Assembly (NCBI RefSeq): GCF_023953935.1
Contig: NZ_JAMLIW010000002.1
Coordinates: 248,001 to 312,000, forward strand
Direction of reading: 5' to 3'
From: Thermomonas sp.
GTDB lineage: Bacteria > Pseudomonadota > Gammaproteobacteria > Xanthomonadales > Xanthomonadaceae
Length of the DNA: 64,000 nucleotides
Under the pieces are notes generated by a model. It worked only from the letters and a program-made list of their open reading frames with translations, was not told the origin of the DNA and searched no databases. A program made the position numbers and the translations under genes. The number at the start of each line of letters is the position of its first letter. The first letter of the stretch is position 1. Shown here piece after piece: positions 3,817-42,484 of the stretch.

Positions 3817-3822
3817 GATAAT
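3817..3822 (+). promoter_or_regulatory. -10 box of leaderless promoter for the EamA gene
   Basis: GATAAT ends exactly 6 bases before the ATG at 3829, placing the expected transcription start at the start codon itself. No Shine-Dalgarno sequence lies in between. This supports the ATG at 3829 over the in-frame start at 3790. Confidence 0.5.
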
Positions 3823-3828
3823 GCGCCG

Positions 3829-4788
3829 ATGCGCAACCCGGACACCACCCGCGCCCTCTGGCAGATCCATTTTTGCGTGCTGCTGTGGGGCTTCACCGCG
3901 ATTCTCGGCAAACTCATCACCCTGCCCGCGCTGCCGCTGGTGTGGTGGCGGATGCTGCTGGTGACGGTGGCGCTGGCTCTGCTGCCGCGGGTCTGGCGCG
4001 GGCTGGCGGCCCTGTCGACGCGCACACGGCTGGCCTACGCCGGCATCGGCATGCTGGTCGCCCTGCACTGGCTGACCTTTTACGGCGCGATCAAACTCTC
4101 CAACGCCTCGGTGGCCGCCACCTGCATGGCCTTCGCCACCCCGATGACCGCCCTGATCGAGCCGCTGCTCACCCGCCAGCGCTTCCGCCCCGGCGACCTG
4201 GCGCTCGGCCTGCTGTCGCTGCCGGGCATCTGGCTGGTGGTCGGCGGCGTGCCCGCCGGCATGCACATCGGGATTCTCGTCGGCGTGGTGTCGGCATTTT
4301 TCGTGGCCACCTTCGGCTCGCTCAACAAGCGCCTGGTCGATGCCGGCGATCCGCTCACCGTCACCGCGCTGGAACTGGGCACTGGCACCCTGCTGCTGAC
4401 CCTGCTGGCGCCGCTGATGCCGGCGCTGGTGCCCGCCTTCGCCGGATCGCTGCTGACCCTGCCCTCGCTCTCCGATGCGCTGTGGCTGCTGCTGCTGGCC
4501 CTGGCCTGCACCCTGCTGCCCTACGCGCTGTATCTGGTCGCCCTGCGCCACCTGTCGGCTTTCACCGCCCAGCTTTCGGTCAACCTCGAACCGATCTACG
4601 CGATCGTCCTCGCCGCCCTGCTGTTCGACGAACAGCAGGAACTGCACGCCCGCTTCTATCTCGGCGTTGCCATCATCCTCGCCGTCGTCTTCGCCCAGGG
4701 CATCCTCGCCAGCCGCCGCAAACCCGGCCCGGCCGACGAACACGTCGAACTGCTCGGCATCAGCGAGTCGAAGCAGCTGGTGGAATGA
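3829..4788 (+). CDS. EamA-family (drug/metabolite transporter) membrane exporter
   Basis: The 319-residue protein has about ten hydrophobic segments in two repeated halves, typical of EamA/DMT transporters that export amino acids or other metabolites across the inner membrane. The first half contains LLWGFTAILGKL and ends near residue 140; the second half has PYALYLVALRHLSAFTAQLSVNLEP, the conserved helix 9 pattern of the family. The substrate cannot be deduced. The N-terminus starting MRNPDTTRALW fits the family, and a -10-like box directly precedes it. It converges on lipA; an inverted repeat fills the gap. Confidence 0.85.
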   Translation: MRNPDTTRALWQIHFCVLLWGFTAILGKLITLPALPLVWWRMLLVTVALALLPRVWRGLAALSTRTRLAYAGIGMLVALHWLTFYGAIKLSNASVAATCMAFATPMTALIEPLLTRQRFRPGDLALGLLSLPGIWLVVGGVPAGMHIGILVGVVSAFFVATFGSLNKRLVDAGDPLTVTALELGTGTLLLTLLAPLMPALVPAFAGSLLTLPSLSDALWLLLLALACTLLPYALYLVALRHLSAFTAQLSVNLEPIYAIVLAALLFDEQQELHARFYLGVAIILAVVFAQGILASRRKPGPADEHVELLGISESKQLVE

Positions 4789-4840
4789 TCTGCCATTCAC
4801 AAGAATCAAGAGCGCGGAGGCGATCCGGGCCCCCGTGATT

Positions 4841-4902
4841 GGTGGCAGACGCTGGATCCGTGCAATTCCGTCTCTACTGGCGCTGATCCAACGCCTGCCA
4901 CC
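4841..4902. repeat. Inverted repeat between convergent EamA gene and lipA
   Basis: Two 18-base arms (4841-4858 and 4885-4902) pair with two mismatches around a 26-base loop. The element lies between two converging stop codons, so a bidirectional terminator or REP-like role is plausible. There is no T-tract on either side. Confidence 0.5.
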
Positions 4903-5031
4903 GGCGCAGGTCCGGCTGTCGTGCAGGTGCTGGACGAACGGGTGTGCGTGTTGTACGGCAAGGTCGGACGCCGCGGCAGCGAGGCAAGCCGTGCTCGCCT
5001 GAGCAGGCGGCCCGCTCAACGCAGTGCAAGC

Positions 5032-6084
5032 TCAACAGCGCATCGACGCCGCTTCGCGGATGCCTTCGGCGATGACCGGATCCAAGGCGGCGCGTTCGAG
5101 ACCGACGTTGTTGTGCTGCAGCACCTGCTCGGCGCGGTAGCTGGAGCGCACCAGCGGACCGGCGACGACTTCGAGGAAGCCCTTGGCCAGGCCCATTTCC
5201 CGGTATTGGTGAAACTGCTCCGGGGTGACGAAGCGTTCAACCGGCAAGTGGTTCCTGGTCGGGCGCATGTACTGGCCCATCGTCACCACATCGACATTGG
5301 CGGCGCTCAGGTCGTCCAGCGTGCGCTCGATATCGTCGTCGGTTTCGCCCAGGCCCAGCATCAGGCTGGTCTTGATCACGGTCTGCGGCGCGTAGCCCTT
5401 GGCAAACTTCAGCAGGTTGATGGTCTGCCAGTAGCCGGCGCGCGGATCGCGGACCGGGTGGGTCAGCCGTTCCACCGTCTCGATGTTCTGGGCGAAGGTG
5501 GCCAGTCCGGCGTCGAGCACGGTGGCGACGTGTTCGTGCTTGCCGCCAAAATCCGGCGTCAGCGCTTCCACCGCGGTCTGCGGCATGCGGCCGTGGATGG
5601 CGCGGATGCAGGCGGCGTAGTGGCCAGCGCCGCCGTCGGGCAGGTCGTCGCGGTCCACCGAGGTCAGCACCACGTACTTGAGCTGCATCAGCGCCACCGC
5701 GTCGGCGACGTTGGCCGGCTCCAGCGGGTCCAGCCAGCCATTCGGATTGCCGGTCGACACCGAGCAGAACTTGCAGGCGCGGGTGCACACCGAGCCCATC
5801 AGCATCAGGGTGGCGGTGCCGCGGCCCCAGCATTCGGCGATGTTCGGGCATTTGGACTCGGCGCAGACGGTCGAGAGCTTGTGGCTCTGCACGATCTCGC
5901 GGATCTCCTGAAAGCGCGCGCCGGTCGGCAGCTTGACCCGCAGCCACGCCGGCTTGCGATCCACGTCCGGCACCGCGCTGAGCTTGTTCGGCTTGATCCC
6001 GTCCTTGATCGCCGGGGTGCCCTGCGGGCTGACGAACTTGCTGCCCGGAAGCGGGCGGAGGCTGTCGCTGCTGGTGTCGTTCAT
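5032..6084 (-). CDS. lipA: Lipoyl synthase
   Basis: This radical-SAM enzyme inserts two sulfurs into octanoyl groups on the E2 and GcvH proteins to make lipoate. The 350-residue protein has both iron-sulfur sites: the auxiliary cluster cysteines in [12 protein letters not shown] and the radical-SAM CxxxCxxC as CTRACKFC. The C-terminal RSSYRAE, whose serine ligates the auxiliary cluster, is intact. ATG at 6084 gives the usual N-terminus; an upstream in-frame start adds 16 unlike residues. lipB, its usual neighbour in Xanthomonadales, is not adjacent here, and lipA stands alone, converging with the EamA gene. Confidence 0.97.
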
Positions 6085-6161
6085 TGTTTCGAAACCTGCT
6101 GTCGCCGCGGCCGGCCGGCCGCATGGAACCAAGGCGCGGGGTGGTGCCGCGCAACCTGCGC

Positions 6162-6167
6162 ATCATA
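6162..6167 (-). promoter_or_regulatory. Extended -10 promoter candidate for lipA
   Basis: The reverse strand reads TTGGTATGAT here, a TATGAT -10 with an extended TGn motif. It predicts a leader of roughly 70 bases before the lipA ATG. No clear -35 hexamer is seen, which is acceptable for an extended -10 promoter. Confidence 0.45.
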
Positions 6168-6277
6168 CCAATCGCAGTTGACAGACATTCTTCCCGGGCA
6201 AAACAGCGCTGGCGGCGCGAAACCGGAATCGCGCATTCCAGACCGCGCACCGTCCACGCCCAAACCCTTCAGCCCAC

Positions 6278-7648
6278 TCAGACCGCTCCGGTGCCGGCCA
6301 CGGTCATCCGGTCGATCCAGATCGAGCCGGTGCGCACATGCGAGCGCAGGTCCACGTCGCTGCCCACGGCTTCGATGCCGGCAAACATGGTTTTCAGATT
6401 GCCGGCGATGGTGATGCCGTCCACCGGATACGCAACTTCCCCGTTTTCGATCCAGAACCCGGCCGCGCCGCGCGAGTAGTCGCCGGTGATCGCATTCACG
6501 CCCTGCCCCATCAATTCCGTCACCAGCAGGCCGCGACCCATGGCCGCCAGTTGCGAGGCAAGATCGCCTGCATTGGCCTTGACAGTGAGGTTGTGGACGC
6601 CACCCGAATTGGCGGTGGTTTGCAGCCCCAATTTGCGCGCCGAATAGCTGCCCAGCACATAACGCTGCACGGTGCCGGCTTCGACCAGCATGGAACGTCG
6701 CGTGGCCACGCCTTCGGCATCGAACGCTGCCGAACGGAAGCCGCGCCGCAGGAAGGGATCCTCTTCGATCGCGAACCAGTCCGGAAACACCCGCGTGCCC
6801 ACGCTGTCCAGCAGGAAGCTGGCGCGCCGGTACAACGCCCCCCCCGAGATCGCGCCGATGAAACTGCCGATCAACGAACGCGCCATCTCCGCGCTGAACA
6901 ATACCGGCACCTGTCCGGTCGGCAATTGCCGTGGCTGCAACCGCGCCAGCGCGCGCTGCGCGGCCTTGCGGCCAATGGCATCCGGCGCCTCCAGATCAGG
7001 CGGCGCCAGCGCCACGCTGTACCAGCCATCGCGCTGCATGGCTTCGCCAGCCCCGGCAATCAGCGCGCAGCCGATGCTGTACGAGGTCGACCGCTCGGCG
7101 CCCGAGAATCCGTGCGAATTGGCGTACACGCTGAGCGAGGCGTTGGCATTCATCGAGGCACCATCGGAATTGCCGATGCGCGGATCGACGCCACGGCCTG
7201 CGGCCTCGCAGGCCAGCGCCACGTCAATGGCCCGATCCGCGTCAAACGGCAGCGGGTGCCAACCGTCGAACTCCGCCTGGTGTTTCGCCATCAAGCCCGC
7301 ATCGGCCAACCCCGCGCATGGATCCTCCTCGGTATGCCGGGCAATCGCGCAGGCCTGCGCAACGGTGGCGGCCAGGCTGTCTTCGCGCAGGTCGGCGCTG
7401 CTGGCACTGCCCTTGCGGGTCCCGAAATACACGGTGACGGAAACGCCGCGGTCGCGGGTGGCTTCCACCGTTTCCACTTCGCCCATGCGCACGTTGACCG
7501 CCAACCCGGAGTCCTCGTTGCAATTCACCTCGCACTGGTCGGCGCCCATGTCCCTGGCACGTCCCAGCAGCTGCTGGGCAAGGTCGGACAAGCGGGCAAT
7601 CCGCGCCGGGCTGTCGTCGGGCGCGGAAACAACATCGTGGTGGCTCAT
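6278..7648 (-). CDS. pmbA: Metalloprotease-associated protein PmbA/TldE
   Basis: PmbA (TldE) partners TldD in a heterodimeric peptidase that in E. coli matures microcin B17 and degrades CcdA. The 456-residue protein has the family layout: an N-terminal domain with [27 protein letters not shown], and a C-terminal beta-rich domain with [13 protein letters not shown] and [26 protein letters not shown]. As expected for the E subunit it lacks a HExxH zinc site. ATG at 7648 is preferred; 7654 would add two residues. It diverges from yjgA, and tldD lies just beyond yjgA, so both halves of the protease are encoded within 3.5 kb. Confidence 0.95.
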
Positions 7649-7659
7649 GGGCAATGGCT

Positions 7660-7665
7660 TATCCT
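7660..7665 (+). promoter_or_regulatory. -10 box of leaderless promoter for yjgA
   Basis: TATCCT is followed by exactly 6 bases and then the yjgA ATG at 7672, with no ribosome-binding site between. The box sits inside the short divergent gap with pmbA. Confidence 0.5.
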
Positions 7666-7671
7666 GTGCGG

Positions 7672-8193
7672 ATGCGAGGACGTGACGAAGACACCGGGGA
7701 GTTTCTCAGCCCCAGCCGCAGCGCACAACGCCGCGCGGCGCTGGACGTGCTGGCGCTGGGCGAACGGCTGGTGGCACTGACGCCGGCCCAGCTGGGCAAT
7801 CTGCCGATCCCCGAGCAGCTGCTGACGCCTATCCGCGAGACCCAGCGCATTCCTTCGCACGGGGCGCGCAAGCGGCAGCTGGCCTTCCTGGCCAAGCAGA
7901 TGCGCCAGCTGGATGCAGAGGCGCTGGATGCCATCCGCGACGCGATGAGCACGGACAGCGAGACCGCCCGCCGCGAAACCGCCGTCATGCATCGCGCCGA
8001 GGCCCTGCGCGAAGCCCTGCTGGGCGAAGACGGCGATGCCGCGCTGACCGAACTGCTGGTCCGATACCCGCACGCCGACCGCCAGAAACTGCGTCAGCTG
8101 GTACGCAACTGTCGCGAAGAACAGACGAAGAACAAACCGCCGCGCGCGTATCGGGAGTTGTACCGTCTCCTGCGCGAGATTGGTGATTCGTGA
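7672..8193 (+). CDS. yjgA: Ribosome biogenesis factor YjgA (DUF615)
   Basis: YjgA associates with late 50S ribosomal subunit precursors. The 173-residue, charged, helical protein carries the family signature: [22 protein letters not shown] at the N-terminus, [24 protein letters not shown] centrally and a C-terminal [13 protein letters not shown] followed by [16 protein letters not shown] at 7672 matches the family start (an acidic stretch before SRS) and lies 6 bases after a -10-like box. The last codons and the TGA stop are built from the first two units of the GTGATTN repeat, giving an ending GDS. Confidence 0.92.
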
Positions 8194-8337
8194 TTCGTGA
8201 TTGGTGATTGGTGATTGGTGATTCGTGATTGGTGATTGGTGATTCGAAAGAGCCGGAGCAGGAAAACGCGATTTGTGCCATGCCCCGGCCCTCAAGTCAC
8301 CGCTCTTGCCAATCACGAATCACCAATCACCAATCAC
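8183..8337. repeat. Paired GTGATTN heptamer arrays in opposite orientation
   Basis: Nine GTGATTN units run forward at 8183-8245 (last base C,C,G,G,G,C,G,G,C), and four run in reverse complement at 8310-8337. They flank a 64-base loop that itself has GAAAGAGC near one side and GCTCTT near the other, so the whole can fold back. The arrays supply the stop codons of the two converging genes, yjgA and tldD. A role as a bidirectional terminator is possible but unproven. Confidence 0.9.
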
Positions 8338-13810: not shown

Positions 13811-13814
13811 GGCC

Positions 13815-15293: not shown

Positions 15294-15859
15294 GGCAGCA
15301 CCCCGAACTGGCGCAGCAGGCCGGCTGTTTCGTGCAGGGGCAGGCCCATGACACCGGAATGACTGCCGTCCAGGCGCGCGACCTGCGCCTCGAACACGCC
15401 CTGGATGGCGTAGGCGCCGGCCTTGCCGCGCCACTCGCCGGATTCCAGATAGCGCGCGATCGCGGCCTCCGACAGCGGCGCCACCGTGACGCGGCTGAGC
15501 GACACCGCCTGCGCCTCGCGCCCGGCCGACACCACTGCCACCGCGGTCAGCACCTCGTGGCTGCGGCCCGACAGCCGACGCAGCATCGCCGCAGCTGCCG
15601 CGGCGTCGGCCGGCTTGCCGAACACCTCGCCCTCGAGGATCACTTCGGTATCCGCGCCCAGCACCACCGCCCCCGCCACCGCCACCACGGCGAGCAAGCC
15701 GGCGCCCGCTTTTTCGCGGGCCACGCGACGAACGTAGTCGGACGCAGCTTCGTTTGCCCCCTGCCGTTCGGGAACGTCGAGGTCGAGGATGCCGAATTCC
15801 AGCCCGAGCCGGGCCAGCAACTCGGCGCGGCGCGGGGAGCGCGAGGCCAGATGCAACAT
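15290..15859 (-). CDS. maf: Maf-like nucleotide pyrophosphatase
   Basis: Maf proteins hydrolyse non-canonical or excess nucleoside triphosphates; the YhdE type prefers dTTP/UTP. The 189-residue protein has the N-terminal LASRSPRRAELLARLGL substrate loop, the LGADTEV acidic motif, the FGKPAD lysine motif and the YAIQG segment. The gene begins the maf-rng unit and overlaps rng by 4 bases. A -10-like TAGACT ends 6 bases before the ATG, so its message is probably leaderless. Confidence 0.92.
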   Translation of the reverse strand: MLHLASRSPRRAELLARLGLEFGILDLDVPERQGANEAASDYVRRVAREKAGAGLLAVVAVAGAVVLGADTEVILEGEVFGKPADAAAAAAMLRRLSGRSHEVLTAVAVVSAGREAQAVSLSRVTVAPLSEAAIARYLESGEWRGKAGAYAIQGVFEAQVARLDGSHSGVMGLPLHETAGLLRQFGVLP

Positions 15860-15865
15860 GCGTGC

Positions 15866-15871
15866 AGTCTA
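15866..15871 (-). promoter_or_regulatory. -10 box of leaderless promoter for maf-rng
   Basis: The reverse strand reads TAGACT, then 6 bases, then the maf ATG at 15859. No Shine-Dalgarno is present. Confidence 0.5.
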
Positions 15872-23738: not shown

Positions 23739-23744
23739 TAGTTT
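23739..23744 (+). promoter_or_regulatory. -10 box of leaderless promoter for cysG
   Basis: TAGTTT is followed by 6 bases and the cysG ATG at 23751. No ribosome-binding site lies between. Confidence 0.45.
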
Positions 23745-23750
23745 GGGCGC

Positions 23751-25208
23751 ATGTCGCCAGCCGCCGCTCCGCCACTGTTCCCCCTGTTTGTCGACCTGCG
23801 CCAGCGCCGCGTGCTGGTGGTCGGGGGCGGCGCCGTGGCCGCCCGCAAAGTCGCCGCGCTGCTCGCCTCCGGGGCCGACGTCGCGCTCGTTGCTCCCGGG
23901 CTGGACCCGGCGCTGGAAGCGCTGGTCAGCACCGGGGAGATCACTCATCTGGGCGACGCATTCCAACCCGAGCAGCTCGACGCGGCCTGGCTGGTCGTCG
24001 CCGCCACTGACGCGCCCGAGGTGAACCGGGCGGTGGCCGACGCGGCGCTGGCGCGCCAGCGTTGGGTCAACGTGGTCGACGACGCGCAGCTGGCCAGCGC
24101 CCAGCTTCCGGCGCGGGTGCAGCGCGGCCCGCTGCAGATCGCCATTTCCAGCGGCGGCGCCGCGCCGATGCTGGCACGGCACCTGCGCGAACGGCTCGAA
24201 CTCCAGTTCGACGACAGCTTCGGCGCGTTGGCGCAGCTGTTCATCGAAGTGCGTGACCGAATCCGTACCCGGCTTCCCGAGCTCCCGGCGCGCCGCGATT
24301 TCTTCCAGCAGGTCCTGTCCGGGCCTGTGCCAGCGCTGCTGCGGCGCGGTGATGCGGACGGCGCTCGCCACCACCTCACGGCGCTGCTGCAAGCCGCGCC
24401 GGCCGGCCGACGCGGCCGCGTGGCGCTGGTGGGCGCCGGCCCCGGCGATCCCGGCCTGCTCACCCTGCGCGCCCTGCGCCTGCTCAACGAGGCCGACGTG
24501 ATCCTGCACGATCGCCTGGTCAGCGCCGAGGTGCTGGCGCTGGCGCGGCGTGATGCCGATCGCCTGGCAGTCGGCAAGCGCGTGGGCGAAGACCACGACG
24601 CCACCCAGCGCCGCATCCACGCATTGATGGTCGAACGGGCGCTGGCCGGCCAGCGCGTGGTGCGGCTGAAGGGCGGCGATCCGTTCGTGTTCGGCCGCGG
24701 TGGCGAAGAGCTGCAGGCGCTGCGCGCGCACGGCATCGACTGCGAAGTCGTGCCCGGCATCACCGCCGCCGTTGCCTGCGCCGCTTACGCGGGCATCCCG
24801 CTGACCCACCGCGACCATGCCCGCGCGCTGCAACTGCTCACCGCCAGCACCCGCAGCGGCGAAGCCGAACACGATTGGCGGGCATTGGCCCGATCCGGCC
24901 AGACACTGGCCTTCTACATGGGCATGTCCGGACTGTCGCGGCTGCGCGATCGCCTGCTCGACCACGGCCTGCCCGCCTCGACGCCGGCCGCCCTGATCGA
25001 AAACGGCAGCCTGCCGCAGCAGCGGGTGCTGGTCGCGCCGTTGTCCGAATTGCCACAGCTCGCGCAGGCGCACGCCGTGCAGGCGCCGGCGCTGTTGATC
25101 ATTGGTGAAGTCGCCGCACTGGCGACCTCGCTGCATTGGTTCGGCAAGTCGCCCATCACTTCCGCCAGCCAGCGATGTTGCAACAGCGACCTCGCCCGCG
25201 CCGCCTGA
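23751..25208 (+). CDS. cysG: Siroheme synthase (trifunctional CysG)
   Basis: CysG turns uroporphyrinogen III into siroheme, the cofactor of CysI. The 485-residue protein joins two modules: residues 1 to about 205 are the precorrin-2 dehydrogenase/ferrochelatase ([17 protein letters not shown] nucleotide-binding loop, [13 protein letters not shown]), and residues about 218-460 are the SAM-dependent uroporphyrinogen methyltransferase ([52 protein letters not shown]). The last 25 residues are not conserved. cysK follows after 29 bases, probably in the same transcript. Confidence 0.96.
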
Positions 25209-26787: not shown

Positions 26788-28041
<1,254 letters not shown>

Positions 28042-28047
28042 GCCGAC

Positions 28048-28053
28048 ATTTTA
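28048..28053 (-). promoter_or_regulatory. -10 box of leaderless promoter for ispG
   Basis: The reverse strand reads TAAAAT, 6 bases, then the ATG at 28041. The box is a close match to the consensus and the spacing places the transcript start at the start codon. Confidence 0.55.
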
Positions 28054-28232: not shown

Positions 28233-28341
28233 GCTTGGCTTGAACCCATTTCGGCTCGCCGCGCGAACTCCGCTTCCGGCTACGACGCGCGGCCGCGCGC
28301 CATCCATGGCGCGCTCGAACCGAAATGGGTTCAAGCCAAGC
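28233..28341. repeat. 22-base perfect inverted repeat with nested hairpin
   Basis: Identical inverted arms of 22 bases (28233-28254 and 28320-28341, left arm starting GCTTGGCTTGAACCC) flank 65 bases. Inside is a second perfect hairpin, GCGCGCCAT with 2-base loop and ATGGCGCGC. A partial copy of the right-arm sequence (GGCTCAAGCCAAGC) follows at about 28364-28378. The remaining intergenic bases from 28054 to 28447 hold no credible gene. It may be a small non-autonomous mobile element or a REP-type repeat. Confidence 0.75.
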
Positions 28342-28509
28342 CCGTGATTTTCTTGCGCCATCGGCTCAAGCCAAGCCCAAGCCACTCCAGAGCCAGCCCC
28401 GCACCACACCGGCTTTCCGCTGACGCCAATACGCGTGATTGCGGCTAGGGTTCACCCCCGTTTTCACGGACACTTACGAGAAGGCCGATCGAGGCCATGA
28501 GGAGTGTTC

Positions 28510-28809
28510 ATGTCAATGCGAAGGAAGTTCAGCGAGGAGTTCAAGCGTGGCGCGGTTGAGCAGGCCAGCCGGCCTGGCGTCAGTTGTGCCCAAGTGGCGC
28601 GGGAGCTGGGGATTCGGGACAACCTGCTGACGCGCTGGAAGCGGGAAGCCCAGAGCCAGGGCAAGACCGCATTCGGTGGCACCGGGACGCCCCGGGACGA
28701 GGAAGTGGCGCGTCTCAAACGCGAACTGGCCCGGGTGCAGAAGGAGCGGGATTTTTTGCGCGAAGCGGCGACGTTCTTTGCCAAGGGATCGTCCCGAGGT
28801 ATCGGGTGA
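28510..28809 (+). CDS. IS3-family transposase OrfA
   Basis: The 99-residue DNA-binding protein has an N-terminal helix-turn-helix ([17 protein letters not shown], then [20 protein letters not shown]) and a C-terminal leucine-zipper-like coiled coil ([20 protein letters not shown]) ending ATFFAKG. ATG at 28510 has GAGGAG 5 bases upstream; a GTG 6 bases earlier is less likely. The stop overlaps the OrfB frame. Normal transposition in this family uses an OrfAB fusion made by -1 frameshifting late in this gene. Confidence 0.9.
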
Positions 28810-29666
28810 TCGAACGTTGCCGCGATGAGTTTCCGATTCGACTGATGTGCCGCTGCCTGAAGGTATCGGCCAGCGGCTACTACGACTGGAGCAAGCGCTT
28901 GCCCAGCGACCGACAGTGCGACAACCAGCGCCTGCTTGGCCGCATCCGCGAACTGCATGAAGACAGCCGGGGGACGTTGGGTGCTGGCCGGATGCAGGAG
29001 GATCTTGCCGAGGAAGGCGAGACGGCAAGCCTGAACCGGGTGGCACGGATCATGGCTGCTGACGGACTGCAAGGCTGGCCGCGTCCGAAGCGGCGTGGTC
29101 AGCGCGGGAGCCCCGCGCTGACGCCTCTGGGTGTGCGCAACCACCTAGAACGGGACTTCACTGCGCTGGAACCGGAGACCAAATGGGTCACCGACATCAC
29201 CGAACTCAAGACCGGCCAAGGCAAGCTGTACCTGTGCATCGTGCTGGACCTGTTCGACCAGCGCGTCGTGGGCTGGTCGATGCATCACCGGCAGGACCGA
29301 CAGATGGTGATCCGGGCCGTGCAAATGGCGGTCTGGCAGCGTCAGGAAAGCTATCCGGTGATCTTGCATTCCGACCGCGGCAGCCAGTTCCGAAGCGGCG
29401 ATTACCAGCGCTATCTGGCGGCCAACAATCTGGTGTGCTCGATGAGTGCCGTGGGTCATTGCGGCGACAACGCCGCCTGCGAGGGCTTCTTCGGCCTGCT
29501 CAAGCGCGAGCGCGTCTACCGCACGAAGTACCCGACACTCGATGCTGCAAGGGCGGATGTGTTCGAATATATCGAACGACGCCATAACCCAAGGATGCGA
29601 CGCAGAGTCATCAGACAAGACCAGAAGTTTTCAGCTCTTTCCAAACCGTCCGTGATTTCGGGGTAG
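28806..29666 (+). CDS. IS3-family transposase OrfB (DDE integrase)
   Basis: The 286-residue catalytic subunit contains the DDE triad: D in [11 protein letters not shown] in [10 protein letters not shown] and E in [14 protein letters not shown], with exactly 35 residues between the second D and the E. Upstream is the HTH_21-like segment [23 protein letters not shown] at 28806 overlaps the OrfA stop as GTGA, allowing coupled translation; an OrfAB fusion by slippage further upstream is the usual transposase. The stop codon lies inside the right inverted repeat. Confidence 0.88.
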
Positions 29667-29672
29667 AACCCC

Positions 29673-29678
29673 TACGAT
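29673..29678 (+). promoter_or_regulatory. -10 box of leaderless promoter for xseA, at the IS junction
   Basis: TACGAT overlaps the CTA target duplication and is followed by 6 bases and the xseA ATG. The upstream -35 region is now IS sequence, so the promoter is either lost or a hybrid. The uninterrupted parent site can be rebuilt by joining 28447 to 29675 and has the same TACGAT. Confidence 0.45.
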
Positions 29679-29684
29679 GCCTCC

Positions 29685-31115
29685 ATGCCCGCAGCCGCCG
29701 CCAGCCTCACACCCAGCCAGCTCAACACCCTCGCGCGCGAGCTGCTCGAAGGCAGCTTCCCGGCGGTGCTGGTGGAAGGTGAAATCGGCAACCTCGCCCG
29801 CCCGGCCTCCGGGCATCTCTATTTCACCCTCAAGGATGCCCGCGCGGCGGTGCGCTGCGCGCTGTTCAAGCCCAAGAGCCAATGGCTGAAGTTCGTCCCC
29901 AGGGAAGGCATGCAGGTGCTGGTGCGCGGACGGCTGACACTGTACGAACCGCGCGGCGACTACCAGCTGCTGCTGGACACCATGGAGGAGGCCGGCGAAG
30001 GCGCGCTGCGGCGGGCGTTCGAGGAACTCAAGCAACGGCTCGACGCCGAGGGTCTGTTCGACCCCGCGCGCAAACGCGCCCTGCCCACCTTCCCGCGTCG
30101 GATCGGGGTGCTCACCTCGCCGTCCGGGGCGGTGATCCGCGACATCCTCAGCGTGCTGCGGCGGCGCTTCCCGCTGCTGGAGGTCGAGCTGCTGCCGGTG
30201 CCGGTGCAGGGCACTGCCGCGGCCGCGCAGATCCGCGCGCTGCTGGCGCGCGCCGATGCCAGCGGCCGTTATGACGTGTTGGTGCTGGCCCGCGGCGGCG
30301 GCTCGCTGGAAGACCTGTGGGCCTTCAATGACGAAGCGCTGGCGCGGGCGGTGGCGGCGTGCGCCACGCCGGTGATTTCCGCGATTGGCCATGAAACCGA
30401 CTTCTCGCTGACCGACTTTGCCGCCGACCTGCGCGCGCCCACGCCATCGGCCGCCGCCGAGCTGCTGGCCCCGGACGCGATCGAACTGCACGCGCGGCTG
30501 GAGCACCTGCAGCGCCGCCTGCTTGCCCAGCACGAGTCCGGCCTGCGCGAACGCGCCCAGCGCGCCGACCGCGCCTTCCTGCGCTTGCACGCGCAGCGCC
30601 CGCAGGCGCGACTGGAGGCGCAGCGCCAGCGCCTGGTTCACGCGCAGCTGCGACTGGCCGGTACCCTGGCGCAGCGCCTGCAGCAAGGGTCCGGAACCCT
30701 GCGAACTTTGGTCGCGCAGCTGCGCGCCGGCCATCCGCGCCGGCGTGCCGAACAGCTGCGCGGACAGTTCCAGGCCTTGGTCGCACGCCTGCGCGCCAAC
30801 CATCCGCGCCAGCAAGTCGAACGCCAACGCGAACGCCTGTCGGCGCTGGCCGGTCGGCCGCGCGCGCTCCTGATCCAGTCCCTGCAAAACGACGTGCTCC
30901 ATCTCGGCGGCCTGGCGCGCTCACTGCATGCCATCAGCCCGCTGGCCACCGTGGATCGCGGCTACAGCATCCTGCAGCGGGAAGATGGCTCGATCATTCG
31001 TTCGGTCGCCGGCGTGGCCATCGGGGAACGCGCCAGCGCGCGCGTCGGGGACGGTGACTTGCAGCTGCAGGTCACCGGCATCCTGCCCAAGCGCGGGACC
31101 GGCAACGCGACCTGA
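29685..31115 (+). CDS. xseA: Exodeoxyribonuclease VII large subunit
   Basis: XseA is the catalytic subunit of ExoVII, a single-strand-specific DNA exonuclease. The 476-residue protein has an N-terminal OB fold ([32 protein letters not shown]), the catalytic domain ([60 protein letters not shown] shown in part) and a long Arg/Gln/Ala coiled coil before the C-terminal VDRGYSIL. The small subunit gene xseB is not adjacent. An IS3-family element ends 13 bases before the ATG and has replaced the native upstream DNA. It converges with the GGDEF/EAL gene. Confidence 0.95.
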
Positions 31116-34209: not shown

Positions 34210-34215
34210 TAGTCT
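34210..34215 (+). promoter_or_regulatory. -10-like box just upstream of the ECF sigma gene
   Basis: TAGTCT is followed by 7 bases and the ATG at 34223. The spacing is one longer than at the other leaderless sites. An autoregulatory ECF promoter could lie further upstream but was not recognised. Confidence 0.35.
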
Positions 34216-34222
34216 GGTGCCG

Positions 34223-34774
34223 ATGGACGTGCCCGAGGCCAGCGACGAGGACCTGATGGCGGCTTGGGTGGCCGGGACCGCCGGGGCCTTCGAACAGCTC
34301 TACGCGCGCTACCGGCAACGGCTGTATCGACACCTGCTGCGGCACCTGCGCGACAACGCGTTGACCGATGAGCTGTTCCAGGATGTCTGGCAAAAAATCA
34401 TCGCCGCGCGCGCGCAATGGCGGCCGGAGGGCAGCTTCGCCAGCTGGCTGTTCGCCATCGCCCATCACCGATTGAGTGATCACTGGCGGCGCAGCGCGCA
34501 CCGCCCGCCGGCACCGAGCGATGCCGACGAACGGCTGGCGCAGATCGCCGATCCCGACACGCCCGAACGCGCGCTGTCCGAATTCGAACGCCGCCGTCAG
34601 CTGCAGCTGGCCCTGGATGGCCTGCCCGGCGAGCAGCGCGAGGTGCTGCTGCTGCGGCTCGAACAGGAACTGTCGCTGGATGAAATCGGTGCCATCGTCG
34701 GCGCCGGCCGGGAAACCGTCAAATCCCGGCTGCGCTACGGCATGGACAAACTGCGTGCGAGGCTGGCGCCATGA
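34223..34774 (+). CDS. ECF-type RNA polymerase sigma factor
   Basis: The 183-residue protein has only sigma regions 2 and 4, as in the ECF group. Region 2 spans about residues 20-85 (AFEQLYARYRQRLYRHLLRH, ELFQDVWQKI, GSFASWLFAIAHHRLSDHWR) and region 4 about 125-180 (LPGEQREVLLLRLEQELSLD, then EIGAIVGAGRETVKSRLRYG). The stop overlaps the start of the next gene (ATGA), which encodes a membrane protein with the shape of an anti-sigma factor. Which signal and regulon it serves cannot be told from the sequence. Confidence 0.9.
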   Translation: MDVPEASDEDLMAAWVAGTAGAFEQLYARYRQRLYRHLLRHLRDNALTDELFQDVWQKIIAARAQWRPEGSFASWLFAIAHHRLSDHWRRSAHRPPAPSDADERLAQIADPDTPERALSEFERRRQLQLALDGLPGEQREVLLLRLEQELSLDEIGAIVGAGRETVKSRLRYGMDKLRARLAP

Positions 34775-35887: not shown

Positions 35888-35893
35888 TAAAAT
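35888..35893 (+). promoter_or_regulatory. -10 box of leaderless promoter for the ABC exporter
   Basis: TAAAAT lies 6 bases before the ATG at 35900, after a 61-base gap from the anti-sigma gene. No ribosome-binding site intervenes. Confidence 0.55.
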
Positions 35894-35899
35894 GCGCGG

Positions 35900-37690
35900 A
35901 TGAACTCTCGAACCCAGGCGTCGCCCAAGGCGCCGATCGGCGCATTGCGCGCGCTGTGGCCGTTCATGCGCCGCCACTCCGGGCTGTTCATGGCCTGGCT
36001 GCTGGCGCTGGCCTGCTCCTCGACCGCCACCTTGAGCCTGCCGATCGCCTTTCGGCAGATGATCGACAAGGGCTTCAGCAGCGGCGCCAACATCGACCGC
36101 GTGTTCGGCTTCGTGCTGATCGTCATCGTGGTGCTGGCACTGGCCACCGCAGCGCGCTATTTCTTCGTCACCCTGCTCGGTGAAAAGGTCGTCGCCGACC
36201 TGCGCACCGGCCTGTATTCGCATCTGCTCGAACTGGACGCCGGTTTTTACGACCGCAGCCGCAGCGGCGAACTGGTCTCGCGCCTGACCGCCGACGCCGA
36301 ACTGCTGCGCAGCGTCATTGCTTCCAGCATGTCGGTGGCCCTGCGCAGCTGTGTCACCGTAATCGGCTCGCTGGTGATGCTGTTCGTCACCAGCCCCAAG
36401 CTCGCCGCCTGGGCGCTGGTCGGCATCCCCTGCGCGGTAGTTCCAATCGTGATGGGCGCGCGCCGGATCCAGAAAACCTCACGTGCCAGCCAGGACCGGA
36501 TCGCCGACGCCAACGCGCTGGCCACCGAAGCGCTGGGCGCCGTGCGCACGGTTCAGGCCGACGCCCGCGAAGGCTACGAGGGCCAGCGCTACGCCAGCGC
36601 AATGGCGGTAGCGGTGGCCACGGCGCGGCGCCGGATCGGCGCCCAGGCGATCGTCACCGGGGTCGCCATCACCCTGATTTTCGGTGCCGTGATCGTGGTG
36701 CTGTGGTCGGGCGCGCACGATGTCATCAGCGGCAAGCTCAGCGCCGGCCTGCTCGGCCAATTCGTGATGTACGCAATGCTCGGCGGCGGTTCGGTCGGCG
36801 CCCTGGCGGAAGTCTGGAACGAATTGCAGAAGGCCGCCGGCGGCATGGGCCGGATCCATGAGTTGCTCGACGAGGCGCCGGCGATCGCCGCCCCCGCCGA
36901 TCCCAGCCCGCTGCCTATTCCGCTGCGCGGCGAGATCCACTTCGACAACGTCACCTTCCACTACCCGCAGCGGCCCGATCAGGCCGCGCTGCAAGACTTC
37001 AGCCTGCGCGTGCGCCCCGGCGAGACGGTGGCGCTGGTGGGGCCGTCGGGCGCCGGCAAGAGCACGGTGATTTCAATGCTGCTGCGCTTCCATGACCCCG
37101 CAATCGGCGCGATCACGCTGGACGGCACCGACATCCGCCGCTTCGACCCGGCCCAGCTGCGCGGCGCGATCGCCCTGGTCGCGCAGGCGCCAGTGATCTT
37201 CGCCGCCAGCGCCGCCGACAACATCCGCTACGGGCGGCTGGAGGCCAGCGCCGCCGAGGTGCGCGGCGCCGCCGATTCGGCCAAGGCCAGCGAATTCCTC
37301 GACGCGCTGCCGGAGGGCTTCGACAGCGAACTGGGCGAGCGCGGCACCCGCCTGTCGGGCGGCCAGCAGCAGCGCATCGCGATCGCCCGCGCCCTGCTCA
37401 AGAATGCGCCGATCCTGCTGCTCGACGAGGCCACTTCGGCGCTCGACGCGCAGAGCGAACGCGCGGTGCAGGAAGCGCTGGAAAACCTGATGCAAGGCCG
37501 CACCACGCTGGTAGTGGCGCACCGCCTCGCTACCGTGCTCAAGGCCGACCGGATCGTGGTGATGGACCACGGCCGGGTGGTCGCCGAGGGCAGCCACGCG
37601 CAGCTGTTGGCCCAGGGCGGGCTGTACGCCGAACTGGCGAAACTGCAATTCCTCGACGCGACCGCCGCGCCCGCACCGGCTACTGCATGA
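35900..37690 (+). CDS. ABC exporter, fused membrane and ATPase domains (MsbA/ABCB type)
   Basis: The 596-residue half-transporter has a six-helix membrane domain (residues about 20-310) and an ATPase domain with Walker [10 protein letters not shown], the signature [15 protein letters not shown], Walker [13 protein letters not shown] and the H-loop VVAHRLATV. It should work as a homodimer exporting lipids, peptides or drugs. It is not obviously MsbA itself, and no lpxK or other LPS gene is near. The last 11 bases overlap the end of the converging 3-hydroxybutyrate dehydrogenase gene. Confidence 0.9.
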
Positions 37691-38498
37691 ACCAGCCGTG
37701 GCTGACCACCAGTGATTGACCGGTCAGCGCATTGCTTGGCCAGGCGGCAAAGGTCAGCGCCGCCTGCGCGACGTCATCGACGGTGGTGAACTGACCATCC
37801 ACGGTGTCCTTCAACATCACCTTCTTGATCACGTCCTCTTCGCTGATCCCCAGCTCCTGCGCCTGCTCGGGGATCTGCTTCTCCACCAGCGGCGTGCGCA
37901 CGAAGCCCGGGCAGATGACGTTGCTGCGGATGTTGTGCGCGGCGCCTTCTTTCGCAATCACCTTGGCCAGACCTTCCAGCCCGTGCTTGGCGGCGACGTA
38001 GGGGCTCTTGAGCTTCGAGGCTTCCTTCGAATGCACCGAGCCCATGAAGATGATGCTGCCGCCGCGGCCGGAGGCGATCATCTGCCGCACCGCCGCGCGT
38101 GAGGTCAAAAAGCCGCCGTCCAGATGCACCGCGATGAGCTTCTTCCAGTCCGAGAACCTGAAGTCCTGGATCGGCGCGACGATCTGGATGCCGGCATTGC
38201 TGACCAGGATATCGACCGGGCCCAGCGCCTGCTCCACCTGCGCGAAACCGGCCTCGACTGCGGCCTCGTCGGTCACGTCCATCGCCACGCCCAGCGTGCG
38301 CACGCCCTTCTTCGCGATCTCGTCGGCGGTGGCTTGCGCGATCTCCTGCTTGAGATCGGCGATGACCACGTCGGCGCCGGCGTCGGCATAGACCTCGGCG
38401 ATGCGCTTGCCGAGGCCGCTGGCAGCGCCGGTGACCAGGGCCAGCTTGCCCTTCAGGCTGAGCAGGTGGCTGGCGTGGACTTCGATGTTCTGGCTCAT
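37680..38498 (-). CDS. bdhA: 3-hydroxybutyrate dehydrogenase (SDR family)
   Basis: This short-chain dehydrogenase is predicted to oxidise D-3-hydroxybutyrate to acetoacetate with NAD. The 272-residue protein has the nucleotide loop [10 protein letters not shown], the NAG motif in VSNAGIQ, and the catalytic Ser154, Tyr167 and Lys171 ([14 protein letters not shown]). The C-terminal [13 protein letters not shown] is typical of this enzyme. A ribosome site AGGA lies upstream of ATG 38498. The patatin gene 43 bases upstream is probably cotranscribed; the pair recurs in Xanthomonadales (from memory). Confidence 0.88.
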
Positions 38499-38541
38499 GG
38501 GGGTTGTCCTGTACTGCGGGGGAATGGGTGCGGCGGAACGG

Positions 38542-39696
38542 TCACTCGCCGTAGCGACGCTCGGAGTGCGTGGCCTGGTGGTCGATGACGCAGAAACCGC
38601 CCGCGCACGGCGGCCGGTGGGCGTCGAGCAGGGCCAGCGAGCCCTGCATGTCGCTCATGCCCGCCACCCAGTGCTCACGCATCGACTGCGCGGAAAATTC
38701 GTAATCCTTGTTCTGGGATTCGAAGGGCTTGGGTCGGTGGATGACGTGAACGAGGGTGACCGCCGGCATCTGGCTGGCTTGCAGCAGCGCCCGCACCTCG
38801 GGGCGGGCACGCCGGTCTTTCGGCAACAGCTCGGCCATCCGGTGCAGATCGTGCCGCAGCTGGTGGCGCTCGCGCACCAGATCGCTGACCAGGCGCGTGC
38901 GGCTGGAAAAACGGATGTCCTTCTGGCGCTCGGCCACCGCCTCGAGGTCCTCCGGAAGCGCGCCGCGCGCGCTGAACAAATCGACCTGGAAGATCGTCGC
39001 GCGCCCGTCCGCCCGACCCTTGAGCTGTTCCATCACCCGCGCCAACGGCGTGTTCGAAACCAGCCCGCCATCCCAATAGTGACGACCGTCGATCGCGATC
39101 GCCGGAAACCCGGGCGGCAGCGCACCGCTGGCCATCACGTGTTCGGGGCGGATGCGGATGCTGCGGTTGTCGAAATGCACCAGGTTGCCGGTTTCCACAT
39201 CCACGGCATCCACCGAGAAATGCACCGCACCGTCGTTGATGCGATCGAAATCGACCAGCTCGAGCAGGGTTTCGCGCAGCGGCTGGGTGTCGTACACGCT
39301 GGCCGGCGGGTGTGGCCACCATTCCCACCACGGGCGCGGGCTGAAGAACCCCGGAACGCCCATCCAGACGCCCCACAGCGCGGCGCCGGTATTCATCCAC
39401 GGCCGCAGGAGGGCATCCGGGTGTTTGACCGCAGGCTCGACGAACGGCAGGCTCACGCGCTCCCAGAACGCGTGCAGCCGCTCGACCCGGCGCGTAGGCG
39501 GATTGCCGACGATCAGCGCGGCGTTGATCGCGCCGATCGACACCCCGGCCACCCAGTCGATGTCGCCGCTGCGCGCCGCCAGCGCCTCGAACGCACCGGC
39601 CTGATAGGCCCCCAGCGCGCCGCCGCCTTGCAGCACCAGTGCGGTGAAGGGCCGATCGGTTGCCGCCGGCGGGTGACTTGCCTTGATCCTTGGCAT
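38542..39696 (-). CDS. Patatin-like phospholipase with DUF3734 C-terminus
   Basis: The 384-residue protein has the patatin oxyanion loop [11 protein letters not shown], the nucleophile S53 in GVSIG and the catalytic aspartate in YWDGGLVSN. The remainder (about residues 210-380), including [19 protein letters not shown], matches the DUF3734 extension of the phospholipase branch linked to polyhydroxyalkanoate metabolism. Its coupling with a 3-hydroxybutyrate dehydrogenase fits a role in PHB or fatty-acid turnover. No signal peptide is seen, so it is probably cytoplasmic. Confidence 0.9.
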
Positions 39697-39766
39697 GAAT
39701 GAATGTTTGCGAATCGGACCCGTTCAAGTTAGCGCGGCGTGCGCCGCGAACGCGTGAACGTCCGCG

Positions 39767-40408
39767 TCACTTCTGCTTCCAGGCCCCGCCCACCTGGTAC
39801 CACCAGCCCGGGCGCGCGCTGCTGATCCACTGCTTGGCGAACACGCCGCGAATCTGGGCTTCCCACTCGGGGTGGCCGTTGGCGACCGCGACTTCACGGT
39901 AAACCGCCTTGCGGTCGCGATTGTCGTCGGCCACCGCCGCGTTCATCGCCACCCGATCCTTGAGTTCGATCTTCGACGGATCGCGCACGGTGATCAGCCC
40001 GTCGTCGGTAAAGCCCAGCGCACCGCTGTCGAACCCGGCACGCAGGGTGGCGCCGAAGCGGGCCTCCATGCGCGCCTGGATCGCCTGGATGGTCGGCGTC
40101 TTGATGGTGATGTCCGGCGCCGACTGCGCCTGCGCGCTGCCGATGCCCAGCAGCATCCACGGATCGAAGCGTGCACCGGCGTTGGCGCCGCCAAAATCGA
40201 GCCGCCGCTGCAGCGCCATGCCGCCGCCCGCAGGCGCCGGCTCCTGCGCCGGTTCCTGCGCCGGCGGGGCGTTCGGATCGCTGATGACCTTCTCGACGAA
40301 CTCACGCGCGGCGTCGCGCGCCTCGGCCGCCGGGAAATAGACGTTGATCGTCACGCAGGCCGTCAGCAGCAGCCCGCTGGCCATCGGTATACCCATCCAC
40401 TTGCGCAT
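39767..40408 (-). CDS. YdbL-like (DUF1318) lipoprotein
   Basis: The 213-residue protein begins with a lipoprotein signal (residues 1-17, lipobox LLTAC). After it comes VTINVYFPAAEARDAA, the YnbE/DUF1318 lead, then a Pro-rich linker and a C-terminal DUF1318 domain (TIQAIQARMEARFGATLRAG, DDGLITVRDPSKIELKDRVA, then EWEAQIRGVFAKQW). In E. coli ydbH-ynbE-ydbL is an operon for an envelope-spanning lipid-transport complex. Here the lipoprotein anchor and the DUF1318 domain seem combined in one polypeptide, replacing YnbE plus YdbL. The start ATG 40408 is chosen for the signal sequence. The ydbH-like gene ends 33 bases before. Confidence 0.72.
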   Translation of the reverse strand: MRKWMGIPMASGLLLTACVTINVYFPAAEARDAAREFVEKVISDPNAPPAQEPAQEPAPAGGGMALQRRLDFGGANAGARFDPWMLLGIGSAQAQSAPDITIKTPTIQAIQARMEARFGATLRAGFDSGALGFTDDGLITVRDPSKIELKDRVAMNAAVADDNRDRKAVYREVAVANGHPEWEAQIRGVFAKQWISSARPGWWYQVGGAWKQK

Positions 40409-40441
40409 CACATTCACTCCGTTCCGGCTGACTCGTTCCAT

Positions 40442-42472
40442 TCATTCAATGACCGGCGCTACCTCGCCCTTGCCCGCCGCCAGCAGTCGCTGCACCAGCG
40501 TCGTCCAATCAACGGCGCGATTGAAGCCGATCACGTCCAGCCGCGGCACGCCGCTGCCTTCGACAATAGTAAAGGCGTTTTCGTCCTGAGCCCCCGCTGA
40601 ACCCGACAGCCCGCTCATCGTGCAGATCTGGTTTTCCAGCCGGCAGCCAATCCCCAGGCGGCGATAGCCGAAGTCCGAAAACAGCCCGATCAGCTGGCCC
40701 TGAAGGCTGGCCATGAACGAGGAATCGCCGACGCTGCCGATGTCCTGCACCGCGCGCTGGCTGATCCGCTGCTTGACCCCCGGCGCCGGATAGCTGGCGA
40801 AGCGGGCATCGAACGCCACCGGGGTCCAATCGACCAGGCGCAGGCCCTCGATCGATCCGTCCAGCCGGCCGGTGATCGTGCCAAAGCCCAGCACCTCGGT
40901 CAGCCGCGCCAGATCCAGGCCCTTCAGCGCGATGTCGGCGGTCAGGCTGGGCGCGGTGCCGAACGGGCGCTCCAGCGCCAGCTCCGAAAAGCGCACCGTG
41001 CCGTCGAACAAATGCAGGGTCAGGCCGCCGTCGAAATCGATGCGGTCGTTGGCGTAATGCGCGCTCGGAATCTCGCCGCCGAGCACGCCGGTGAACGCCG
41101 GCAGGCCCAGCGCCTTCGAGACTCGTCCGAAATCGATGCCTTCCAGCGCCATGCCGAAGCGGATGTCGGCGCCGGCATCCTCGCGCGCGGGACGGATCGC
41201 CACATCGCTCAGGGTCAGGCTGCCGCCCTGCATCGGCACGCGCCACGGCGCGCGCGAACGCAGGGTGCCGTCGCCGCTGCGCAGGGGAATTGCCGCGGCA
41301 CCGAATTCCAGCCCGTAGAGTTCGCCCGCGGTCCACTGCAATTGGCTGTCCACCGGCGCCTCGGCCGAATAGCGCAAGTCGCCGCGCAGCCCGTCGAAGC
41401 CGAAGCGACCGGCCGGATCGTGGAGGCCGGCATCGCGCACGACGGCGGTCACTTCGACCAATGCGCCATCCTCGATGCGGGTGGTCATGTCGACGCCACC
41501 CCGCAATTCCACACCACTCAACCCGAGCACGCCCAGCCAGCCGGACAAGTAGCGCGGCGCCAACGGGCCGAGATCGCCGCTGTGCGCTTGCAGTTCGAGT
41601 TCCCGCACGTTGCCATCCGGCGCCAACCGCGCACGGCCGCTGCCGGCCAGCACGTCGCCATCGCGCCATTCGATCCGCGGCAGCCGCCAGCCCTCGGCGC
41701 CGGCACTGTCCGCCTCGATGTGCAGGCCGACCGGCGCCGGCGGCAGCGCGACATAGGTGGAGCCGACCAGGAACTCGCCGCCGTGCAGCACGCCTGCGAC
41801 CGTCACCCGCGCGGCAGCGCTGCCCACGTAAGCCAGCTGGAAGTCGCCGCCCAGGCCTTCCCCGACGATGCTGCTGTCGGCATTCTGCAAGGCCGCCGCG
41901 TGCAGCCGCAGCGGCCCCGACACCCGCAGCGGCGCAGCGGCGGGCGCCACGATCGCCAGCCGTCCGTCCAGCGTGCCCTTGCCGAAGCTGGCCCCTTCCC
42001 ACGCCTGCGCCAGCAGCGCCTGCGCCCAGACCAGCGGCACCCGCGTGAGTATCAGCGTGGTCAGATCGGGCGTCGCCGTGCGCCGCTCCAGCGCCAGCCG
42101 CGCCTGCCCCTGCGCCAGGGTGGCGGTAAGCGCATCCACGTCGAAATGGATCCCCAGCCGCAGCGCCGCAGCGCCGTCGCCGCGCAGCGCACCCTCGCAC
42201 TGCCAGCCGTCCTCCGGCGTTCGCCGCAGCGGGCAGGTCCAAGTCAGGTCGCGAAAGTGGTAGCCCAGCGCCGGCGCATCGACGCGCCCCGCACGAATCC
42301 GCAACTGCCCGCTGTCGGCGTTCTCGGCCCAGTCCAGGCGCACCTGCACCTGTTCCAGCGTCGCCACCGGCGTGTGCATCCGCGCGATCCGCGCCTGCGC
42401 CACCCGCGCCTGCACGGCGGCCGGCGCCAGCAAGGCGGCGGCCAGACACAGGCACGGGATTGAACGACGCAT
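40442..42472 (-). CDS. YdbH-like AsmA-type intermembrane lipid-transport protein
   Basis: The 676-residue protein has a signal peptide or anchor (residues 1-22, LCLAAALLAPAAVQA) and a long beta-strand-rich region. The last 250 residues hold the family pattern LGGEIPSAHYANDRIDFDGG, then VRFSELALERPFG and GRLDGSIEGLRLVDWTPVAF, followed by the C-terminal ISQRAVQDIGSVGDSSFMA. These match the YdbH C-terminal region. The YdbL-like lipoprotein follows directly, as in E. coli. The start ATG 42472 has a TATCCT -10 box 6 bases upstream, suggesting leaderless expression. Overlap with YhdP function is expected. Confidence 0.72.
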   Translation of the reverse strand: MRRSIPCLCLAAALLAPAAVQARVAQARIARMHTPVATLEQVQVRLDWAENADSGQLRIRAGRVDAPALGYHFRDLTWTCPLRRTPEDGWQCEGALRGDGAAALRLGIHFDVDALTATLAQGQARLALERRTATPDLTTLILTRVPLVWAQALLAQAWEGASFGKGTLDGRLAIVAPAAAPLRVSGPLRLHAAALQNADSSIVGEGLGGDFQLAYVGSAAARVTVAGVLHGGEFLVGSTYVALPPAPVGLHIEADSAGAEGWRLPRIEWRDGDVLAGSGRARLAPDGNVRELELQAHSGDLGPLAPRYLSGWLGVLGLSGVELRGGVDMTTRIEDGALVEVTAVVRDAGLHDPAGRFGFDGLRGDLRYSAEAPVDSQLQWTAGELYGLEFGAAAIPLRSGDGTLRSRAPWRVPMQGGSLTLSDVAIRPAREDAGADIRFGMALEGIDFGRVSKALGLPAFTGVLGGEIPSAHYANDRIDFDGGLTLHLFDGTVRFSELALERPFGTAPSLTADIALKGLDLARLTEVLGFGTITGRLDGSIEGLRLVDWTPVAFDARFASYPAPGVKQRISQRAVQDIGSVGDSSFMASLQGQLIGLFSDFGYRRLGIGCRLENQICTMSGLSGSAGAQDENAFTIVEGSGVPRLDVIGFNRAVDWTTLVQRLLAAGKGEVAPVIE

Positions 42473-42478
42473 CCGCGC

Positions 42479-42484
42479 AGGATA
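42479..42484 (-). promoter_or_regulatory. -10 box of leaderless promoter for the ydbH-like gene
   Basis: The reverse strand reads TATCCT, then 6 bases, then ATG at 42472. The same short gap also holds the promoter of the divergent receiver-Hpt gene. Confidence 0.5.

What the first reader, a model, noticed from the sequence alone, without database searches (positions are those of the whole stretch)
3817..42484. A -10 box exactly 6 bases before the ATG at many genes: widespread leaderless transcription
Eight genes have a TANNNT-like (or GATAAT) hexamer followed by exactly 6 bases and ATG, with no Shine-Dalgarno between: EamA (3817), yjgA (7660), maf (15866-15871 reverse), cysG (23739), ispG (28048-28053 reverse), xseA (29673), ABC exporter (35888) and ydbH-like (42479-42484 reverse). 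The ECF sigma gene (34210) has 7 bases. The spacing puts transcription start at the start codon. All are first genes of their units, while internal or coupled genes use GGAG-type sites. In GC-rich DNA such AT-rich hexamers at one fixed offset are unlikely by chance, although no background rate was calculated.
Basis: partly seen in the sequence, partly recalled or inferred. Interest (0 to 1): 0.72.

Follow-up and report, generated by a model that had tools for sequence, protein, structure and literature searches.

The report
Leaderless genes in a Xanthomonas-family bacterium
About one gene in twenty in this bacterium has its promoter box placed so that the RNA should begin exactly at the start codon, with no ribosome-binding leader; this was already known in outline for the group, but here it is traced gene by gene, including divergent gene pairs that appear to share one tiny two-way promoter.

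Summary
All nine boxes are where stated: seven are TANNNT-N6-ATG, EamA is GATAAT-N6-ATG, ECF has 7 bases. Outside the window, 28 of 614 called starts have TANNNT at spacing 6, against about 1 at each nearby spacing. Genome-wide TANNNT-N6-ATG occurs 189 times, N9 79 times. Such genes rarely have SD-like motifs, are rare inside operons (3 of 200), show no -35 signal and favour G at -14. The box-ATG unit is kept in relatives: maf in 28 of 30 family loci (own included), ispG in 9 of 9 testable near relatives with variable N-termini; darP in only 6 of 30. Leaderless transcription of roughly 5% of genes is the best reading; no transcript was mapped. Leaderless genes in Xanthomonadales were already predicted by Zheng et al. 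2011, so the kind is known. The newer part lies outside the window: a palindromic ATGCTAGCAT core between ampD and a divergent gene, both start codons 6 bp away (22-bp gap), found in this exact form in 14 of 60 family genomes.

The parts
3817..3831 (+). EamA gene: GATAAT box, 6 bases, ATG at 3829 (weaker match, lacks T at -12)
   Evidence: Pfam EamA
7660..7674 (+). darP (yjgA): TATCCT, 6 bases, ATG at 7672; divergent from pmbA
   Evidence: spacing 6 in 6 of 30 family loci, own included
15857..15871 (-). maf: TAGACT (15866-15871), 6 bases, ATG 15857-15859
   Evidence: spacing 6 or 7 in 28 of 30 family loci, own included
23739..23753 (+). cysG: TAGTTT, 6 bases, ATG at 23751
   Evidence: conservation not tested (no orthologue in the loci)
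28039..28053 (-). ispG: TAAAAT (28048-28053), 6 bases, ATG 28039-28041
   Evidence: spacing 6 in 9 of 9 testable near relatives
29673..29687 (+). xseA: TACGAT, 6 bases, ATG at 29685; an IS element ends at 29671
   Evidence: spacing 6 in 4 of 12 orthologues, spacing 5 in 1
34210..34225 (+). ECF sigma gene: TAGTCT, 7 bases, ATG at 34223
   Evidence: spacing 7 in 5 of 5 orthologues found, one with GTG
35888..35902 (+). ABC exporter: TAAAAT, 6 bases, ATG at 35900
   Evidence: spacing 6 in 1 of 6 orthologues
42470..42484 (-). 'ydbH-like' gene (no Pfam match): TATCCT (42479-42484), 6 bases, ATG 42470-42472

Best explanation
These are sigma-70-type promoters reduced to a -10 element (GNTANNNT) whose spacing fixes transcription start on the A of the ATG. 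The mRNA then has no 5' leader and no Shine-Dalgarno site, and translation starts at the 5'-terminal AUG, probably on 70S ribosomes (recalled from work in other bacteria). Shown here: the sharp spacing, near-absence of SD, no -35 signal, the G at -14, avoidance of operon interiors, and conservation of the box-ATG unit at several genes. Inferred: the transcript start, the sigma factor and the translation route. About 5% of genes use it; some orthologues keep it across the family (maf, ampD) or its near part (ispG), others mostly do not (darP, ABC).
For: Spacing peak: 28 of 614 starts outside the window versus about 1 per nearby spacing; 189 versus 79 genome-wide for N6 versus N9. SD-like 4-mer in 1 of 34 versus 292 of 629 (partly built in, since the box fills half of the stretch searched). 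Mean best match to TTGACA 2.32 of 6 in the 34 versus 2.66 at the same place in 629 other genes; G at -14 in 71% versus 30%. Family loci with the box, own locus included: maf 28 of 30 (spacing 6 or 7), ampD 29 of 30 (spacing 5-8); ispG 9 of 9 testable near relatives; ECF 5 of 5 at spacing 7.
Against: No RNA data. Gene starts come from my own simple caller, which misplaced the ydbH-like start and missed the ECF gene. darP keeps the arrangement in 6 of 30 loci, ABC in 1 of 6, xseA in 4 of 12; 11 more distant ispG loci (L037, L039-L048) lack it at spacing 6, while two unrelated ones (L062 Burkholderiaceae, L100 a Gammaproteobacterium) have it. In Betaproteobacteria (8 of 541 versus 3.7 per other spacing) and other Proteobacteria (2 of 215 versus 1.2) the peak is weak or absent. 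Several families of the same order show no N6 excess over N9, for example G008 3150 versus 3083 and G005 65 versus 66.
Confidence: 0.9

Rival explanations
1. Chance AT-rich hexamers picked by eye.
Against: Independent stretches give 28 at spacing 6 versus about 1 at nearby spacings; 2000 column permutations never exceeded 14.
Confidence: 0.01
2. The boxes are -10 elements, but the transcript has a very short leader of 1 to a few bases, or start sites scatter around the ATG.
For: Spacing 7 is also above background (6 in 614); 9 of 28 maf loci use 7; ECF uses 7 in 5 of 5 orthologues; ampD uses 5-8, most often 7 (13 of 29).
Against: In this genome spacings 5 and 8 are at background and 6 outnumbers 7 by 28 to 6.
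Confidence: 0.07
3. The motif is not a promoter but a translational or DNA-level signal, such as an in-frame stop before the start codon or a regulator's operator.
For: TAA and TAG boxes at spacing 6 are in-frame stops; ATGCTAGCAT is a perfect palindrome.
Against: Spacings 3, 9 and 12 would share the stop effect and give 0, 2, 0 for ATG starts; T-12, A-11 and T-7 are the key positions of a -10 box and G at -14 fits an extended -10 (meaning of positions recalled); the second two-way site, ATTCTATACT, is not a palindrome.
Confidence: 0.02

Closest known systems
Leaderless genes of Xanthomonadales predicted by Zheng et al. 2011 (PMC3160421; passages and one section read)
   Same: TANNNT about 12 bp before the start codon; among Gammaproteobacteria leaderless genes found mostly in Xanthomonadales and Legionellales; mean 4.5% of genes in the 15 of 239 gammaproteobacterial genomes that have them, close to the 5.1% here.
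   Different: Group-level predictions; the parts I read hold no gene-by-gene conservation or divergent pairs in this group.
-10-motif genes of Deinococcus-Thermus (PMC12340547; outline and Discussion read)
   Same: A -10 box next to the ORF, positions 1, 2 and 6 essential, active without a -35 region.
   Different: Almost one third of ORFs in D. radiodurans versus about 5% here; that work is experimental, and there an added -35 raised expression.
Leaderless mRNAs of Bradyrhizobium japonicum (PMC4842269; passages read)
   Same: An extended -10 of the TGnTA type before leaderless mRNAs.
   Different: Here G at -14 is favoured but T at -15 is not (TG in 4 of 34).
Bidirectional promoters of E. coli and Salmonella (PMC12825309, PMC10268837; passages read)
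   Same: A symmetric -10 firing both ways; divergent starts 23 bp apart are named as a common class in E. coli, the distance predicted at the ampD site.
   Different: The word leaderless does not occur in either main text; here both start codons coincide with the predicted start sites.

Membership tests
Leaderless genes of the TANNNT type | -10-like TANNNT at one fixed short distance before the start codon, above background | tested here: met
   28 of 614 at spacing 6 versus about 1 per nearby spacing
Leaderless genes of the TANNNT type | No Shine-Dalgarno site before the start codon | tested here: met
   SD-like 4-mer in 1 of 34 versus 292 of 629 (partly built in by the box)
Leaderless genes of the TANNNT type | Transcript 5' end at the start codon | not testable with these tools
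   No RNA data are held
Extended -10 promoters | TGn immediately before the -10 hexamer | tested here: inconclusive
   G at -14 in 71%, but TG in 4 of 34
CarD-assisted promoters lacking -35 | A stand-alone CarD protein in the genome | tested here: not met
   the one PF02559 match in G000 lies in a 1193-codon open frame (Mfd-sized)
Bidirectional promoters with symmetric -10 (ampD site) | Reciprocal -10-like elements on both strands between divergent genes | tested here: met
   (sequence only)
Bidirectional promoters with symmetric -10 (ampD site) | Transcription in both directions from the element | not testable with these tools
   No RNA data are held

The most novel reading that the evidence does not exclude
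In this family a conserved 10-bp core (ATGNTAGCAT; in G000 outside the window at C10:133062-133071) is one two-way promoter for two leaderless genes. In G000 it fills the gap between an ampD-like amidase gene and an alpha/beta-hydrolase gene: start codon, 6 bp, ATGCTAGCAT, 6 bp, start codon (22-bp gap), so the two predicted transcript starts are 23 bp apart and both are start codons. In 29 of 30 loci examined (own included) ampD keeps the box at 5-8 bp; the divergent gene starts at exactly 6 bp in 10 of these 29 (5 with a MOSC-domain gene first, 5 with the hydrolase first) and at 9-105 bp in 19. A second recurrent site of this form lies between nnr and queG. The divergent gene thus seems to switch in evolution between exactly leaderless and leadered.
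Probability: 0.7. Interest if true: 0.6.

Novelty: new member of a known kind. Interest (0 to 1): 0.4.

Why it matters
It bears on how gene starts are called (programs that expect SD sites may misplace such starts), shows the leaderless arrangement as a lasting feature of particular genes in a gammaproteobacterial family, and offers natural comparisons: orthologues with and without it (darP), and divergent pairs where one -10 core would set both start codons. These make it directly testable how strictly leaderless translation demands a 5'-terminal AUG in a Gammaproteobacterium.

Tried and rejected
CarD: I asked whether a stand-alone CarD protein could replace the -35 element. G000 has one PF02559 match, inside a 1193-codon frame, hence Mfd-sized; rejected for this genome.

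GTG starts: 2 of 92 GTG starts and 0 of 21 TTG starts have the box at spacing 6, versus 32 of 550 ATG; over all GTG triplets 32 at spacing 6 versus a mean of 27 at spacings 13-39. Inconclusive.

Two-way sites as a general class: CAYN6ANNNTANNNTN6ATG gave 86 matches (both strands; symmetric sites count twice) versus 38 for the tool's reversed pattern in 60 family genomes. Many single sites are likely chance; only the recurrent ampD and nnr/queG sites are claimed.

The exact ampD form with both starts at 6 bp was found in 0 of 365 class genomes outside the family and in 3 of 4 inside it.

The group profile is not an unbiased rate: its loci were fetched around ispG, and in the near group up to 9 of the 14 hits can be ispG itself and 4 xseA.

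Literature: I read listings only, mostly capped. Searches on leaderless genes with Xanthomonas or related genera (21 of 21, 15 of 277, 12 of 1,824 and 12 of 84 papers listed) showed no title or abstract start that reports them for this family; Zheng et al. came. Schmidtke et al. 2012 (Xanthomonas dRNA-seq) was seen only in reference lists; that it reported leaderless mRNAs is recalled. For paired leaderless two-way promoters, (15 of 71, 15 of 96, 12 of 25 listed) showed none by title or abstract start. Warman et al. 2021 is not held.
Full report
Where it is. The window is G000:C9:248001-312000 of a 2.59-Mb, 16-contig genome; the window is 68% GC. Its ispG is closest to a MAG labelled Xanthomonas sp. 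(92%) and to Luteimonas and Lysobacter (83-84%), so it belongs to the Xanthomonadaceae/Lysobacteraceae.

The observation. Seven are TANNNT-N6-ATG; EamA has GATAAT; ECF has 7 bases. Pfam supports EamA, DarP (yjgA), Maf, CysG, GcpE (ispG), exonuclease VII large subunit (xseA), a sigma factor with regions 2 and 4, and an ABC exporter; the 'ydbH-like' protein has no Pfam match.

Background. I called genes in the window plus 40 stretches of the same genome (863 kb, 686 genes) with a codon model that ignores upstream motifs; 663 starts had 80 upstream bases. TANNNT at spacing 6 precedes 34 of 663; outside the window 28 of 614, against about 1 at each nearby spacing, 6 at spacing 7 and 1 at spacing 5. 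A first, smaller sample, contained in this one, gave 15 of 346. Genome-wide, N6 occurs 189 times and N9 79 times, with reversed-pattern controls of 91 and 112. The other genome of the same genus has 180 and 54, but other families of the order can show no excess (G008 3150 and 3083; G005 65 and 66).

Anatomy. Among the 34, SD-like 4-mers are nearly absent (1 of 34 versus 292 of 629), partly because the box fills half of the stretch searched. By upstream neighbour: divergent 16 of 162, same strand 30-100 bp 10 of 91, same strand 100 bp or more 5 of 183, same strand under 30 bp 3 of 200, stretch edge 0 of 27. There is no -35 signal (best match to TTGACA 2.32 versus 2.66 of 6 in other genes); G at -14 is found in 71% versus 30%, A or C at -8 in 88%, and only G or C at -1. 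The promoter is thus GNTANNMT plus a GC-rich six-base discriminator.

Conservation. ispG keeps TANNNT-N6-ATG in 9 near relatives, among them Xanthomonas cissicola, a Stenotrophomonas, Luteimonas and Lysobacter, although the start lies 3 to 81 bases before the aligned part; a tenth locus is cut by its contig end. Eleven more distant loci (L037, L039-L048, among them Dyella, Rhodanobacter and Arenimonas) lack it at spacing 6. Of all 44 loci examined, two others have it (L062, Burkholderiaceae; L100, a Gammaproteobacterium). maf: 28 of 30 family loci, own included (19 at 6, 9 at 7). darP: 6 of 30, own included; many of the others have GGA- or GAA-type stretches before the ATG (not counted). In the named loci L028-L048, xseA has it at 6 in 4 of 12 and at 5 in 1; ECF at 7 in 5 of 5; ABC at 6 in 1 of 6; cysG was not found there. 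By group the peak is 14 of 126 starts in the Xanthomonas-Stenotrophomonas-Luteimonas-Lysobacter loci (0.28 per other spacing), 5 of 148 in other loci of the order (0.60), 8 of 541 in Betaproteobacteria (3.7) and 2 of 215 in other Proteobacteria (1.2). The first figure is inflated, since these loci were chosen around ispG.

A natural experiment. An IS3-like element (integrase core and HTH_21 by Pfam; family name recalled) with imperfect inverted ends occupies window 28448-29671, with CTA repeated on both sides; a 98% copy elsewhere has AGC on both sides. One base separates its end from the xseA box. Anything upstream of the box has been moved 1.2 kb away, while the box and ATG remain. Whether xseA is still expressed is not known.

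Two-way leaderless promoters. Outside the window, at L125:13056-13077, the 22-bp gap between an ampD-like gene (Amidase_2; GTG start) and a divergent gene (weak match to Abhydrolase_6, below Pfam's cut-off) reads GCGCCG-ATGCTAGCAT-CCGCGC. The core gives TGCTAGCAT on both strands, and both start codons are 6 bp away. The exact two-sided form with this core is in 14 of 60 family genomes. ATGCTAGCATN{0,12}ATG is found in 41 of 60; of 68 matches, not all at ampD, 63 have spacing 6-8 (43 at 6), while the reversed pattern gave 3. At ampD, 29 of 30 loci (own included) keep a box of this core at 5-8 bp (6: 10, 7: 13, 8: 5, 5: 1); the divergent gene is at exactly 6 bp in 10 and at 9-105 bp in 19. A second site (ATTCTATACT or its complement) recurs in 8 of 60 genomes; the five such loci held (L130, L132, L135, L145, L148) have proteins of nnr and queG size on the two sides, and Pfam was run on one pair, L132, supporting Nnr and QueG. 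Starts at the two ATGs would be 23 bp apart, a spacing named as common for bidirectional promoters in E. coli (PMC12825309).

Known or new. Zheng et al. 2011 already predicted leaderless genes in Xanthomonadales, with 4.5% on average in the Gammaproteobacteria that have them. The finding is a well-supported member of that kind. The gene-level conservation, the difference between orthologues at darP and at the ampD partner, and the paired two-way sites are what I did not see in the listings; the library lacks most subscription papers, so this is no proof of novelty.

Noticed in passing
L125:13056-13077 (G000:C10:133056-133077): 22-bp gap between divergent ampD-like and hydrolase-like genes made of a palindromic -10-like core and two 6-bp spacers; recurs in the family.
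   Followed up: yes
L132:1501-1528 and similar loci (L130, L135, L145, L148): A second recurrent two-way site, ATTCTATACT, between nnr- and queG-like genes, in 8 of 60 family genomes.
   Followed up: partly
window 28448-29671: IS3-like element flanked by CTA on both sides; one base separates its end from the -10 box of xseA.
   Followed up: partly
window 28251-28323: Intergenic inverted repeat (AACCCATTTCGG...CCGAAATGGGTT) with similar copies in 7 of the other own-genome stretches compared, REP-like.
   Followed up: no
window 42503-43192 (+): A response-regulator/Hpt gene starting about 30 bp from the divergent leaderless ydbH-like gene; it corrects that gene's start to 42472.
   Followed up: yes
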